A stretch of DNA of 64,000 nucleotides from Pelecanus crispus (lineage: Eukaryota > Chordata > Aves > Pelecaniformes > Pelecanidae). Made by a program: the position numbers and the translations under genes. The notes beneath the pieces were generated by a model that was not told the DNA's origin, ran no database searches, and worked only from the letters and a program-made list of their open reading frames with translations. Shown here in pieces: positions 6,504 to 32,950 of the stretch (position 1 is its first letter; each line of letters begins with the position of its first letter). The stretch lies in assembly GCF_030463565.1 (NCBI RefSeq), contig NC_134662.1, positions 1,364,001-1,428,000 of the forward strand, written 5' to 3'.

Positions 6504-9500
6504 GGCAGCAGGAGAGGACAAGGAGACTTTGATGCGCTGACGGCTGACCATGTCCGGGGTGAGTGGGGCTGCCACAGGGATGCCAGCACTTTCCCTGCCG
6601 ACATCGGGGTGACATTTCCCCCCAGGACCACAGTGGGTGGAGGGAGGCTCGTGCCCAGTGCCCCTTGTCCCCAGCTAGGACTTCAGATGGTCCTTGGGGC
6701 TGGCCCCGACGGCTGTGGGAGGTGGAGGGGGGCCAGCTCTCGCTGTCCCTGCTGACACTGCTTTCTCCCTTGCAGAAACACTGGCCCCCCGGGACGCAGT
6801 GCGTCACCAAGCACGACCACACCAAGCCCAAGGCCCAGGAGCTGGCCTTCCGCAAGGGCGACGTGGTCACCATCATTGAGGCTGTGGAGGTGAGCCCAGC
6901 GGGTGCCCAGGGGATGTGCTGCCTCGGGAGGGCATGGAGTGGATGGGACCCTAGTGCCATCAGCTGAGCCGCTGGAGCCAGCCTCCCCCTTCCCCGCTTC
7001 CCAGCCAGATCATCGCTTTCTTCCCTTGCTCTGAGACCCTCTTGCCCCCAGGGCAAAGGCTGGTACCGCGCCAGGCACAACGAGACGGGGCAGGAGGGGC
7101 TGCTGGTGGCCAGCATGCTGCGGGAGCGCGGCGCCATCCGCGTCGACCCCAAGCTCAGCCTCATGCCGTGAGTACAGCCGGGGGTCCCCGGGGGGGGGTG
7201 GGGGTGGGGCAGCGGCCCAGCTCAGCCCCCGGGAGCTGCAACAACAGACGAGTCCAGTGTGTTTCCCCCCAGCCAGGTTTTGGGTGGGCAGCTGGGGGCA
7301 GAGCAGCCCGTAGCCATGCCCTGGCAATGGAGAGATTTGCTGGGGCCAGCACCTGGCTTAGATTTGCTGGGGCCAGCACCTGGCTTTAAAGACCCCCAGT
7401 TGTGCCCATCCAGCTTGGATGGACCTTGCAGGGAGGGGGTTTATGCAACGGGGTCTACGTAGCTTTGGCGGGGGCTCTGCTCTCCCCGTCTCGCTGCTGC
7501 CGCTTGGGGAAGCCCACCAGCACGGCCCCTCTCCCCAATGCCCTTCTCCCCAGCTGGTTCCACGGGAAGATCTCGGGGGTGGAGGCGGTGCAGGAGCTGC
7601 AGCCGGCCGAGGACGGGCTGTTCCTGGTGCGCGAGTCAGTCCGCCACCCCGGTGACTACGTGCTCTGTGTGAGCTTCGGCAAGGAGGTGATCCACTACCG
7701 TGTGGTGCACGAGGAAAACACGCTTAGCATCGACAGCCAGCAGTACTTCTCCAACCTCATCGACATGATCGAGGTGAGACCCCCCGCCTCCCCGGGCAGT
7801 GCTGGACTGAGGGCAAGAGCCTCATAGGGTCACACGGAGCAGAGGCAGGTCCCTGTCCTTTTCTCCCGTGGTTTTCATTGGGTTTCGTTACCTGGTGTAA
7901 TTCTCTGTCCCTGCCAAAGGCTCATGGTTCCCACTCAGCGTGGGGTGCAATGGACAGATCCGGGATGCCCTGGGGACGTCCCCTGCCATGAACCAGTCGC
8001 ACCGGCAGCAGCGCCGGTCCCCTGTCCAGCGCCACGTTTCCCCCCATCCCTGCTCATTCGGTGCTTCACACAGCAGCAGGGCTTAGGGCATTTTGGAAAA
8101 ATGCCTCTGCCACCCCTGGACCCTGGACAAGGTCTGAGCCCTGCCCAGGCTTTGAGGCATTTTGCCACATTTCTCTCCCCTCCGAGCGCCCCTCTCGCCT
8201 GGTGAGCCTGCAGGGCTGCTGCGTTAGCTCTCACCCTTCCAGCGAGCTCTTCCTCAAGGTCCATCTTTGCCCTGTCTCATAGCTGCTGCCCATCTCCTCT
8301 CCAGGTGGTTGCACTCTCATATGTTTTCCTCATTTAGACACAACTTCTGCTTTTGGGTAGGTCCTTTCCCTTTTCAGCTGCCCCTGCCCTGCTCTGTAAC
8401 CGCAATGGCCACCCTGCCAGTTCCGTTCCATGTCGCCTCTGCAAACCACCCTCAGCTGCTGCAGCGACCACCAGGGGTTTTAACCCCATCGGCTGCCATC
8501 CGGCTCACCTGTAGCATCCTGTATTGCCCGTGGTCCTCCCTGGAAGGGAGCATGGCTGACACCGGGGCTGCAAATTGTGGCGCTGGGGGAAATGCGGCAT
8601 TTTGGGCTGTCCAAGCTGAAGGGGCTCCAGGCCTCTCAAGGGTGGCCATGGTGGTGGGGTCCTGTAGAGTGTCCTGCAGCTGTTTCCCAGCTTCACACCC
8701 CGAGCTTGGGGATAAGAGGTGGCATCACCGCATCGTCTCCCATCTGTCCATTCCTTGGCAGCACTACATGAAGGAGCAGGGAGCCATCTGCACCAAGCTG
8801 GTGAAGCCCAAACCAAAAACCGGGATGAAGTCAGCTGAGGAGGAGTTGGCCAAAGGTAGGGGATGGCAGGAGAGGGTTGTGGTCCAAGTTTTGGGGACAA
8901 GGCAGCGTGGCCCTGCTGGTGGCCCCTGCTAACCTGCCCTTGTGCCTGTGCCCAGCTGGCTGGTTGCTGAACCTGCAGCACCTCACACTGGGAGACCGCA
9001 TCGGGCAAGGCGAGTTCGGAGGTAGGTGAGAAGATGGGGTTGGAGGTTCCTGGCCACAGACTTCCCCAAATGGCACCCCTTGATGTCCACTCCCCATCCT
9101 GTGGCATGGGGGGCTCAGCCTGGGATGTGGGGGGTTGGGTGTGGGGCTGAGCCTGACCCCTTGCCTCCCCTCCCAGACGTCCTGCAGGGCGAGTATATGG
9201 GGCAGAAGGTGGCCGTGAAGAACATCAAGTGTGATGTGACCGCCCAGGCCTTCCTCACCGAAACAGCTGCCATGACGTGAGTGCCCTGTGGCGGGATACG
9301 GCCCAACGCTGCCTGGTGACCCGGAGACAAGCAGGCACCCCCTTGACCCGGATCTCCTCCATTTCAGGAAGGTCCGGCACAAAAACCTGGTGTGTTTGCT
9401 CGGCGTGATCCTGCACAACGGCCTCTACATCGTGATGGAGTTCATGAGCAAGGTGAGAGGACCTGGCTGGTCCTTGGCCAGTGGGACCCATTGCCCCTCA

Positions 9501-30400: not shown

Positions 30401-32950
30401 CACCAACCCCTCTGGTCAGGCTCTTACCGTACAGCTGGACAGGGCTGCTGCGCTCCGGGGAGCCTGGAAAGAGAGAAATGTTGTGCCACGGCCCCATGGT
30501 GCCTGCGGTGTGCAGTGGGCAGAGCAGTGGGGACCCTGCCCGCTCTGTCCCCACCTACCTCCATCCCCCTCCTGCCAGGAGCCTCCGGAGGCGAAGAGCC
30601 GCGGGCCTGCAGCAAAGGGGGGAGTTAGGGAGCCCCGTGTGCGGCTGGAGCCCCCCAAAACCGTGGGGCAGCCATAGGAGGGCTTTATGGGGGAGCAGAG
30701 CAAGGACACCCCCTGTGTGGTGGGGGGCCATGGAGGTTTGTCCGGGGCCCTCACCAATCTCCACGTCCACTTCCCGGCTCCACACCTCATGGAAGAGGTT
30801 GAACACGCGGCAGGAGTAGCTGCCCCGCTCAGCTGTTGTCACCAGCTTCACCTGCCGGCAGGACGGCGTGGGCAGTTGGCGTGCTGTGCCGTGCCGTGCC
30901 GCGCCGCGTCACACCCGGGGTCCCGCCATACCTGGAGCCGAGACGCCTGCGCGCCCTCCACGGGGCGCCGGTTCCTGAACCACTGGTACTGGGGCGGGGG
31001 GTTGCCAATGGCTCTGCACTCCAGCGCCAGCGTGTCCCCCTCGGCCAGGCGGCACGGCCGTGGCTGCAGCAGGATCTGCAGCCCTGCCATGGTCGGGCAG
31101 TAACCGCTGGCTGGGGAGGGGATGGGGCGGAAAATCTGGCACGTGGCCACGGCAGGGCTCCGCCGAGCTGCCTCCAGGCCCCAGGTCCCTGACCTGCAGG
31201 CCCTGGCACCCACGGGTGGCATGAGCCAGCGGGCACAAGGAGGACACAGGGCATTCAGCTCCCCTGTGGGCACCGTCACCCCAGCAAGCCCAGAGGCCCT
31301 CGCGACTGAGCCAGGGCGCGACGCGGCACGCGACGCCCCGCGGGAGCCACCCCACTCCCGATGGGGTGAGCGACGCCCTACGGGAGCCACCCTGGTCCCG
31401 ACAGGACAAGCAGTGCCTCATGGGTGCCAGCCTGGGGATGCAGATCTTGGGGCCCACCTGAGCTGGGGCTGCTGCTCTTCTCCACCTGGACGTGGGCCCA
31501 CCTGGAGAAGGCAAAGGCGGCCCCACAGTTCACCCGGCAGATGTACCACTCGGGCTGGCCCGGCGGGGCAGCCGTGTCAATCACCAGCTCTGGGGCCGTG
31601 GCTCCAGGCACCTACGAGACAGGAGGGGGCCAAGGAGTCGGGGGCTCCCTCCCACCCACCCAGGCGTTCTGGCCATGGATGGGGCCCAGGGGCCCTGCTC
31701 AGTGTGGCACGGGGACCTCACCTCCCGCTTCCCGCAGAACCACTGGTACACGAGCCCCGGCGGGCCGGTCGCCCAGCAGGTCAGGGACACCCGCGTCCCC
31801 TCTGCCACCACCTGTGACTCTGGCTGCACCGTGATGCGGATCATGTCCTGGACTGTGGGAGAGGAGAGACCAGCCTGGGCTGGCTGAGACCCCTGTCCTG
31901 CACCATCCCATCACATCCAGTCCCATCCTGTCCTGTCCCACCATACCTTGTCCCGCCTTGCCCACAACAGCCTGTCCTCTCCCATCCCATCCCACCCCTC
32001 TGTCCTGTCCCAACCGTCTCATTCTACCTTGTCCCATCCAGTGCCATCCCACCCACCGCACCCCATCTCATCCTGTTCCACCCTATCCCACCCCACTCTG
32101 CTCCATCCCAGCCCATCTTGGCTCATCCCACTCCACCCTGTTCCATCCCATCCCTTCTTGTGCCATCACAACCTGTCCAATCCTGTCCCTCCCATCCCAT
32201 CTGGTCCCATCGCAGCCTGTCCCACCACATCCCATTGCCCGCCCTCCCATCCTATCTCACCATACGGCATCCACCCCACCCCACCCCACCCAGGGCCCCG
32301 CTACCCAGAGCAAGACCACTAGCAGGAAAAGCTGCTCCTCATCTTCCCCTGCTTTCCTTCTGCTGAGCCTCTGTCCCCCGGTGCCCCTCTCCAGGCCCCA
32401 TGGGACCCCGCTGTCTGTCCCTACCGGCACTGCTGAGGACCTGGCAGGCCTGCGTGTGCCCCATCCTCTCCAGGCAGCCCAGCAGGTACTTGAGGGTGCA
32501 GTCACGCTCGGCCAGGAGCTGCAGGAGGCACTGCGTGGGGCTGCCACGGGGCTCCAGCACCTTCAGCGAGCACATCTCCAGCTCCTCCGTGCTGCAAGGT
32601 GCGCACGGCGCTCAGCACCGTAGCCCACCTCCCGCCCAGGAGGATGGGGACCCCCGCCGGGGGACTCAGCAGTGCCCCCACCCCAGGCTGCGGCCACGAT
32701 GGCGTGGCCAGGGGACCTGCACACCCCTCACTCAGCCCATGTCAGGACTGTGCCCACGTGTGTTTTGTCACCCAGTGGGGGATAGACCCCCAGAGATGCC
32801 CCCTCACTCCTACCTGCACTTGAAGCGCTTCTCTGCCCCGGCCACCTCAGCCAGCTTGCGCCAGCCCCGGCCGGCATTATCCAGGAGCTCACAGAGCCGG
32901 GCCACCACCTCCTCACCCAGCGAGCCGATGGGCATGCTCCAGTCCCCCAT
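27419..32950 (-). CDS. MALT1L: MALT1-like paracaspase (PCASP2/PCASP3 class)
   Basis: Scaffold and protease of the CARD-BCL10-type NF-kB pathway family. Coding exons in transcript order: 32950-32814, 32591-32425, 31852-31722, 31611-31458, 31110-30932, 30851-30755, 30606-30559, 30463-30428, 30160-29957, 29814-29637, 29344-29270, 28797-28670, 28593-28447, 28173-28025, 27919-27785, 27673-27419; all in phase, 739 aa. Order: death domain (about 1-100, with CSLKVLEPRGSPTQCLL as in MALT1), Ig1 and Ig2, caspase-like domain from ATDKVALLIGNMHY, then the Ig3 region. The catalytic His is in YYAGHGYENFGNSF and the catalytic Cys in LLDMCRKR; both are intact. The C-terminus ends about 50 residues after VGKPLIAKL, lacking the long MALT1 tail with its TRAF6 motif and C-terminal cleavage region. 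MALT1 itself is expected beside RAX and CPLX4, so this copy beside RAX2 is a paralogue; which of PCASP2 or PCASP3 I cannot decide. Confidence 0.92.
31880..32300. repeat. Degenerate CCCAT/CCTGT pentamer repeat in paracaspase intron
   Basis: About 420 bp of TCCCATCC, CTGTCCCA and CATCCTGTCC words with a 5-bp period, between the second death-domain exon and the first Ig exon. All frames on the plus strand are open and give Ser/His/Pro-rich peptides; this is a repeat artefact. Confidence 0.85.

What the first reader, a model, noticed from the sequence alone, without database searches (positions are those of the whole stretch)
6504..32950. MATK - complexin - RAX2 - paracaspase: a third arm of the CSK/CPLX/RAX/MALT1 paralogous block
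Seen: four adjacent genes, three plus-strand (MATK, CPLX3/4-type complexin, RAX2) facing a minus-strand MALT1-like paracaspase. Known, from memory: human 18q21 has LMAN1-CPLX4-RAX facing MALT1, and human 15q24 has CSK-LMAN1L-CPLX3. The order and orientation here match both: CSK with MATK, CPLX3 and CPLX4 with this complexin, RAX with RAX2, MALT1 with the paracaspase. Inference: this is an ohnologue block from the early vertebrate genome duplications, and mammals kept only MATK and RAX2 of it on 19p13.3.
Basis: partly seen in the sequence, partly recalled or inferred. Interest (0 to 1): 0.85.

Follow-up and report, generated by a model that had tools for sequence, protein, structure and literature searches.

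The report
Third copy of a retina-gene block
A pelican chromosome keeps a third copy of an ancient gene neighbourhood (a kinase, a synapse protein of the retina, an eye regulator and an immune protease) that was most likely made when early vertebrates doubled their whole genomes, rather than by a small local copying event as one paper proposes.

Summary
The four genes are real, complete and arranged as described. The genome is Pelecanus crispus. Corrected identities: MATK; CPLX4c (named "complexin-3-like" in most birds); RAX2; PCASP2.

The window has six multi-copy genes: these four, APBA3 and TJP3. The ten nearest paralogues found for them lie on two contigs: C46 (LMAN1, CPLX4, RAX facing MALT1; APBA1, TJP2) and C7 (CSK, CPLX3, a third paracaspase; APBA2, TJP1), besides one APBA copy on C45. 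ONECUT, TLE and MBD2/3, predicted beforehand, follow. An unrooted tree separates CPLX3, CPLX4 and CPLX4c, each with cartilaginous fishes.

Parts are in print: Malt1-Rax-Cplx4 with its counterpart, and three paracaspases. The printed cause, a small segmental duplication (PMC7137802), fits badly: MATK and CSK flank different arms and the paralogy is wider than the block. Weak points: arm C7 is rearranged, the paracaspase tree is unsupported, and two frogs carry CPLX4 and 4c on one contig.

New here: a 62-bp noncoding element shared by the CPLX4c-RAX2 and CPLX4-RAX intervals.

The parts
6550..10803 (+). MATK (CSK-homologous kinase), 12 coding exons, 447 aa
   Evidence: Spliced model; SH3, SH2, kinase; SH2 chains: MATK 164.8 bits, CSK 116.6; SH3 chains: MATK 95.3, CSK 66.7; the longest single match is the CSK chain 1k9a, 173.1 bits over both domains
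11490..12049 (.). Four CRX-type sites (GGATTA/TAATCC) upstream of the CPLX4c start codon
   Evidence: 4 in the 1366-bp MATK-CPLX4c interval, mean 0.128 in 500 dinucleotide shuffles, 0 of 500 reached 4; motif and place were picked after seeing the sites; function inferred
12170..13571 (+). CPLX4c (bird 'complexin-3-like'), 3 exons, 156 aa, CaaX end CALM
   Evidence: Model with 88-nt exon 2; Synaphin; tree with shark, chimaera, bichir and frog 4c 100/96
15699..15760 (+). Noncoding element shared with the CPLX4-RAX interval of C46 (weaker extension from 15625); CAATTA and TAATTG (Ret1-core) sites
   Evidence: 52/62 identical to C46:271986-272047, 66.7 bits against a maximum of 40.5 in 100 shuffles; a 34-place pattern made from both copies, up to 3 mismatches, hits only these two places in 1.31 Gb
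21491..24132 (+). RAX2, 2 coding exons, 228 aa, no octapeptide exon in the model
   Evidence: Model; Homeodomain and OAR; C46 RAX has the octapeptide reading upstream
25014..26351 (.). Run of TAATTG/CAATTA sites (six) between RAX2 and PCASP2, a candidate regulatory stretch
   Evidence: Positions listed; no control was run on these
27419..32950 (-). PCASP2 (type 1 paracaspase), 16 exons, 742 aa; YYAGHGYEN and LLDMCRKRN motifs present
   Evidence: Model; Peptidase_C14 and MALT1_Ig; best solved chain MALT1, 550.3 bits; chicken relative named paracaspase-2
35105..36200 (-). MRPL54 (approximate extent; name by eye)
   Evidence: ORF pieces; PF08561 24.0 bits, cut-off 21
36300..42182 (+). APBA3 (approximate extent; name by eye)
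   Evidence: PID and PDZ domains; exon hits C20:1402438-1406185
43785..51130 (-). TJP3 (approximate extent; name by eye)
   Evidence: SH3 and guanylate-kinase domains; exon hits

Best explanation
This is one arm of a chromosome-scale paralogy group made by the early vertebrate whole-genome duplications. The likely ancestral order, all read the same way, was CSK/MATK - LMAN1 - complexin-3/4 - RAX, facing a paracaspase, with APBA and TJP genes beyond. Each arm then lost different members: C20 (the 19p13.3 equivalent) kept MATK, CPLX4c, RAX2, PCASP2, APBA3 and TJP3; C46 kept LMAN1, CPLX4, RAX, MALT1, APBA1 and TJP2; C7 kept CSK, CPLX3, PCASP3, APBA2 and TJP1. Shown here: gene models, order, and where the paralogues lie. 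Inferred: the whole-genome cause, the ancestral order, and the name PCASP3 for the C7 copy. The shared noncoding element and the CRX-type sites suggest that the CPLX-RAX interval worked as a retinal unit before duplication, with CPLX4c used in photoreceptors; that part is inference. No gene was assayed; each is expected to work as its named relatives do.
For: The ten nearest paralogues found for the six multi-copy window genes lie on C7 or C46, 10.6% of the assembly; the other complexins (C46:57.3 Mb, C8) are the distant CPLX1/2 type without CaaX; a further APBA copy is on C45, and one weak PDZ match on C11. C46 repeats complexin, RAX and facing paracaspase with matching strands; C7 has CSK then CPLX3 on one strand about 10 kb apart. 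MATK and CSK flank arms C20 and C7 while C46 gave only weak SH2 matches (E 5e-5 or worse). ONECUT: one each on C20, C46, C7; TLE: 22 of 22 hits on C20, C46, C7 or C45; MBD_C: 2 of 2 on C20 and C46. All three complexin groups include cartilaginous fishes. Shared noncoding element.
Against: On C7 the paracaspase is 2.2 Mb from CPLX3 and on the far side of CSK, and no RAX or LMAN1L was found, so arm C7 is linked but not in order. The families disagree on which arms are nearest: paracaspases pair C20 with C46 (79% against 61%), complexins pair C7 with C46 (CPLX3-CPLX4 63%; shark 4c-CPLX4 59%, -CPLX3 56%); uneven rates may explain it. Frogs Discoglossus and Spea carry CPLX4 and 4c on contigs of one length, as a tandem origin or a later fusion would give. 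The paracaspase tree has no starred branch, and its one non-sauropsid row is flagged as possible contamination. No other vertebrate genome could be scanned. ONECUT, TLE and MBD were picked from my recall of the human map. PMC7137802 finds lamprey and hagfish Rax outside Rax+Rax2, which it reads as a later duplication; a second genome doubling confined to jawed vertebrates (recalled) would give the same tree.
Confidence: 0.92

Rival explanations
1. A small segmental duplication of a Malt1-Rax-Cplx4 piece in the jawed-vertebrate ancestor made the RAX2 arm (the proposal of PMC7137802).
For: That paper's abstract, passages and section 13: one Rax in lamprey and hagfish, placed outside Rax+Rax2. 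The window paracaspase is nearer to MALT1 (79%) than to the C7 copy (61%), as a C46-to-C20 copy would give.
Against: The piece would have landed beside MATK, whose sister CSK sits beside CPLX3 in a third arm; the third arm also has a paracaspase; CPLX4 is nearer to CPLX3 than to 4c; and six families outside the proposed piece (CSK/MATK, APBA, TJP, ONECUT, TLE, MBD) have copies on the same chromosomes.
Confidence: 0.05
2. The complexin and paracaspase are bird- or sauropsid-specific duplicates that moved next to MATK and RAX2.
For: The bird complexin is divergent (40-52% to named non-bird relatives), and no turtle, crocodile, squamate or mammal is among the named hits of 119.
Against: Shark, chimaera, bichir and frog 4c sequences group with it at 100/96; the linkage is reported for shark, gar and coelacanth.
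Confidence: 0.01
3. Old tandem or chance linkage: the arms arose by separate duplications and translocations.
For: CPLX4 and 4c share a contig length in two frogs; C7 lost order and RAX; complexin and paracaspase distances disagree on the nearest arms.
Against: The same three chromosomes recur for CPLX, paracaspase, APBA, TJP, ONECUT and TLE.
Confidence: 0.02

Closest known systems
Malt1-Rax-Cplx4 block and its paralogous counterpart (PMC7137802; abstract, passages and section 13 seen)
   Different: That account has two arms and reads them as a small segmental duplication; its main text has 0 occurrences of MATK (figure labels are not held). Here a third arm, the MATK/CSK flanks and wider paralogy are added.
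CSK-LMAN1L-CPLX3 and LMAN1-CPLX4-RAX units (PMC2941751; passages and section 5 seen)
   Same: Proposes an ancestral LMAN-complexin unit; zebrafish cplx4c is a divergent fifth member
   Different: Section 5 gives no neighbours for cplx4c; here its bird orthologue sits between MATK and RAX2.
Type 1 paracaspases PCASP1-3 (PMC5978004; passages seen; Hulpiau 2016 recalled only)
   Same: Window gene has the Ig, caspase and MALT1_Ig parts and the catalytic motifs
   Different: The order of events was left open there; 'synten' and 'whole genome duplication' occur 0 times in its main text. Here all three are tied to one set of chromosomes.

Membership tests
Ohnologue block (paralogon) of the vertebrate genome duplications | Several unrelated families duplicated together on the same set of chromosomes | tested here: met
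   CPLX, paracaspase, APBA, TJP, ONECUT and TLE on C20, C7 and C46; MBD on C20 and C46; MATK/CSK on C20 and C7; RAX on C20 and C46
Ohnologue block (paralogon) of the vertebrate genome duplications | Splits older than the jawed-vertebrate crown | tested here: inconclusive
   Supported for the complexin (4c 100/96, CPLX3 100/100, CPLX4 93/90 unstarred); only by distance, with one doubtful record, for paracaspases; MATK and RAX2 not treed here
Ohnologue block (paralogon) of the vertebrate genome duplications | Splits younger than the split from amphioxus and tunicates | not tested
   No invertebrate sequences were obtained
Ohnologue block (paralogon) of the vertebrate genome duplications | Conserved local order between arms | tested here: inconclusive
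   Met for C20 against C46; CSK-CPLX3 kept on C7 but its paracaspase is 2.2 Mb off and RAX was not found
CPLX3/4 subfamily | 88-nt second exon and CaaX C-terminus | tested here: met
   88 nt in window, C7 and C46 genes; ends CALM, CSVM, CSVM; the CPLX1/2-type genes end MFKK
Type 1 paracaspase PCASP2 | Death-type domain, Ig domains, C14 protease with His and Cys, MALT1_Ig | tested here: met
   Ig, C14 and MALT1_Ig over their cut-offs; Death 20.0 bits, under its 22.6 cut-off, but a solved MALT1 N-terminal chain matches residues 8-99 at 83.1 bits
Type 1 paracaspase PCASP2 | Protease and NF-kappaB scaffold activity | not testable with these tools
   Needs an assay
RAX2 | Paired-type homeodomain and OAR, no octapeptide in tetrapods | tested here: met
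   octapeptide statement from PMC7137802

The most novel reading that the evidence does not exclude
The CPLX-RAX interval was already a retinal regulatory unit before the genome duplications: its RAX-binding element survived in two arms for over 400 million years (age recalled), and after duplication arm C20 became a rod unit in which RAX2 and CRX drive both RAX2 and the neighbouring complexin CPLX4c, a unit that mammals dismantled by losing CPLX4c.
Probability: 0.3. Interest if true: 0.65.

Novelty: new member of a known kind. Interest (0 to 1): 0.5.

Why it matters
It bears on a printed disagreement about whether RAX2 came from a small segmental duplication or from whole-genome duplication, and brings evidence that the two-arm view lacks: MATK and CSK flank different arms, and a third paracaspase lies on the CSK chromosome. 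It ties the three vertebrate paracaspases, whose sequence of events was left open, to one set of chromosomes. It indicates that the gene filed as 'complexin-3-like' in most birds is the orthologue of fish complexin-4c, which is enriched in zebrafish rods. It names a short paralogous noncoding element that can be tested as a RAX/RAX2 enhancer.

Tried and rejected
The Synaphin family scan of the genome missed the window's own complexin, so absence from such scans (for example LMAN1L) is weak evidence. A 109-bp DNA search found only the window copy of the noncoding element; a pattern made from both copies was needed, so its two hits are by construction and only the lack of others informs. I asked whether the element is the known Rax enhancer CNS1: passages of PMC8335887 put CNS1 about 2 kb upstream with Sox2 and Otx2 sites; this element is about 4 kb upstream of RAX and has no ACAAT/ATTGT, so I do not equate them. 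I first suspected a loss of a conserved tyrosine in bird CPLX4c generally; of 119 sequences 67 were read by the motif and 65 of these have Y, the two H being the pelican and one fish. The nine-row paracaspase tree gives no starred branch. Paper searches for MATK/CSK ohnologues (0 papers), APBA3/TJP3 paralogon (5 papers with two of three terms, none on this by title), cplx4c (2 papers) and RAX2/MALT1/CPLX4 (1 paper) listed nothing else that treats the arms together; the library holds open-licence papers only.

Selection told: the complexin tree used 40 rows: 38 that I chose for spread out of 233 distinct hits listed (one identical with the window), and two pelican models; group labels were given before the tree from record names. 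Lists were capped: 120 of 1174 and 120 of 891 shown. The contig comparison entered 105 and 88 distinct contig lengths typed; rows without a contig, repeats of one contig and unnamed environmental rows were left out. TJP1/TJP2, APBA1/APBA2 and MRPL54 labels, human map positions, Z and W names and the two-step duplication model are recalled.
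Full report
What is there. The window is C20:1364001-1428000 of a 1.31-Gb genome. A protein record identical to the window complexin comes from Pelecanus crispus on a contig of 7,389,123 bases, which is the length of C20, so the genome is the Dalmatian pelican (common name recalled). Spliced models give MATK, a CPLX3/4-type complexin, RAX2 and a convergent paracaspase, with open frames and GT/AG junctions, and Pfam domains to match. The next genes are MRPL54, APBA3 and TJP3 (domains, names by eye), so the window looks like the bird equivalent of human 19p13.3 (human order recalled).

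Names. The kinase is MATK rather than CSK: single-domain chains score higher for MATK (SH2 164.8 against 116.6 bits, SH3 95.3 against 66.7), although the longest single match is a CSK chain covering both domains, 173.1 bits. The paracaspase is PCASP2: its chicken relative is filed as 'paracaspase-2'. By elimination the C7 copy should be PCASP3; that is inference. The complexin is filed as 'complexin-3-like' in most named bird hits and 'complexin-4-like' in rhea and ostrich, but the tree puts it with complexin-4c of sharks, chimaera, bichir and frogs. All three pelican genes of this subfamily have the 88-nt second exon that PMC2941751 calls invariant (section 5).

Three arms in one genome. C46 holds LMAN1 (+), CPLX4 (+), RAX (+) and MALT1 (-) at 0.22-0.44 Mb, the same arrangement as CPLX4c (+), RAX2 (+), PCASP2 (-) here. 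C7 holds CSK and CPLX3, both on the minus strand about 10 kb apart, at 22.70-22.72 Mb, and a paracaspase at 24.89 Mb. RAX and LMAN1L were not found on C7. APBA3 and TJP3 have their relatives on C46 (41.4 and 38.3 Mb) and C7 (18.28 and 18.04 Mb); a further APBA copy is on C45, probably the W chromosome, and a weak PDZ match on C11. Two more complexin genes, at C46:57.3 Mb and C8:10.46 Mb, are the distant CPLX1/2 type. So the ten nearest paralogues found for the six multi-copy window genes fall on two contigs that make up 10.6% of the assembly. Genes of one block are not independent, so I give no probability.

A wider check. From the human map as I recall it I predicted that ONECUT, TLE and MBD2/3 should follow the same chromosomes. 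They do: ONECUT-type hits once each on C20 (1.98 Mb), C46 (0.90 Mb) and C7 (14.73 Mb), the other eight CUT hits being on C11, C12, C5 and C2; TLE, 22 of 22 hits on C20, C46, C7 or C45; MBD_C, 2 of 2 on C20 and C46. These families were chosen with knowledge, so they confirm a prediction; they do not sample the chromosome.

Age. In the complexin tree (40 rows, 161 columns, unrooted) 4c (100/96) and CPLX3 (100/100) are starred and CPLX4 is not (93/90); each holds cartilaginous fishes, so all three lineages existed in the jawed-vertebrate ancestor. For paracaspases the evidence is thinner: over 127 residues a sturgeon record, flagged UNVERIFIED_CONTAM, is 95% identical to pelican MALT1 and 76% to the window gene, and a nine-row tree has no starred branch. 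PCASP2 and CPLX4c share 23 contigs, matched by equal length, ostrich, rhea, kiwi and emu among them; four of these contigs are 100 to 518 kb long. For fishes the linkage rests on PMC7137802.

Against the printed alternative. PMC7137802 (abstract and passages; section 13) explains RAX2 by duplication of a small Malt1-Rax-Cplx4 segment after the split from jawless vertebrates, and itself says that genome duplication is not excluded. A small segment does not by itself explain why the RAX2 arm is flanked by MATK, sister of the CSK that flanks CPLX3, while C46 gave only weak SH2 matches, nor why a third paracaspase lies on the CSK chromosome. Its tree, with cyclostome Rax outside Rax+Rax2, is also what a second genome doubling confined to jawed vertebrates would give (model recalled). 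The distances do not settle the order: MALT1 and PCASP2 are closest among paracaspases (79% against 61%), but CPLX3 and CPLX4 are closest among complexins (63%, against 59 and 56% of shark 4c to them).

Regulatory traces. Comparing window 13572-27000 with the CPLX4-RAX interval of C46 gives the two RAX coding exons and one noncoding match that stands out: 15699-15760 to C46:271986-272047, 52 of 62 bases, same orientation, 66.7 bits; next best noncoding 34.3 bits; best of 100 shuffles 40.5. A 34-place pattern made from both copies, with up to 3 mismatches, hits only these two places in the genome, and its backward control none. Both copies hold CAATTA and TAATTG; passages of PMC3937059 say that the Ret1 site mediates Rax binding, with core CAATTA, and list GGATTA as the BAT1 core, a potential site for Crx, Rax or other paired-like factors. 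The 1366 bp between MATK and CPLX4c hold four GGATTA/TAATCC sites against a shuffled mean of 0.128, a test made after seeing them. In zebrafish, cplx4c is listed among rod-enriched transcripts and cplx4a among rod-depleted ones (PMC5806438, passages). From these I infer, without proof, that CPLX4c is a photoreceptor gene in birds and that the shared element is an old RAX-family enhancer.

Weak points. Arm C7 is linked but rearranged. Two frogs have CPLX4 and 4c on contigs of one length. No vertebrate genome other than this one could be scanned, and MATK/CSK and RAX trees were not made.

Verdict. It is a new, better documented arm of a known kind of thing, whose value lies in weighing two printed accounts against each other and in the shared noncoding element.

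Noticed in passing
window 31110-30932: Database models of PCASP2 in pelican (P0002, marked low quality) and chicken (P0094) read the start of the second Ig domain otherwise than my exon 5, which agrees with turtle and goose (P0110, P0113); the public models may be wrong there.
   Followed up: partly
window 12973-13060: The pelican CPLX4c helix has H (RDKH) in place of a tyrosine that 65 of 67 readable relatives keep; the other H is in one fish.
   Followed up: partly
G000:C45:18.60 and 4.82 Mb: APBA and TLE copies on C45, probably the W chromosome, i.e. gametologues of the C46 (Z) genes.
   Followed up: no
G000:C46:57.25-57.30 Mb: A CPLX1/2-type complexin on the same contig as CPLX4, which I did not expect on a bird Z; a fusion, the assembly or my recall may explain it.
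   Followed up: partly
window 58318-58645: Eight near-identical 41-bp tandem copies (97%) beside an 81% GC stretch.
   Followed up: no
window 53188-53301: A 42-bp tandem repeat with 2.7 copies beyond the TJP3 exons.
   Followed up: no
window 5292-5561 and about 22530-23000: Remnants that look like CR1-type LINE elements, the first with a reverse-transcriptase-like reading; named by eye.
   Followed up: no
window 25014-26351: Six CAATTA/TAATTG sites in 1.3 kb downstream of RAX2, a possible second regulatory stretch.
   Followed up: no
one search hit list: No turtle, crocodile, squamate or mammal among the named ones of 119 CPLX4c hits although frogs and sharks are there; either several losses or a limit of the search.
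   Followed up: no
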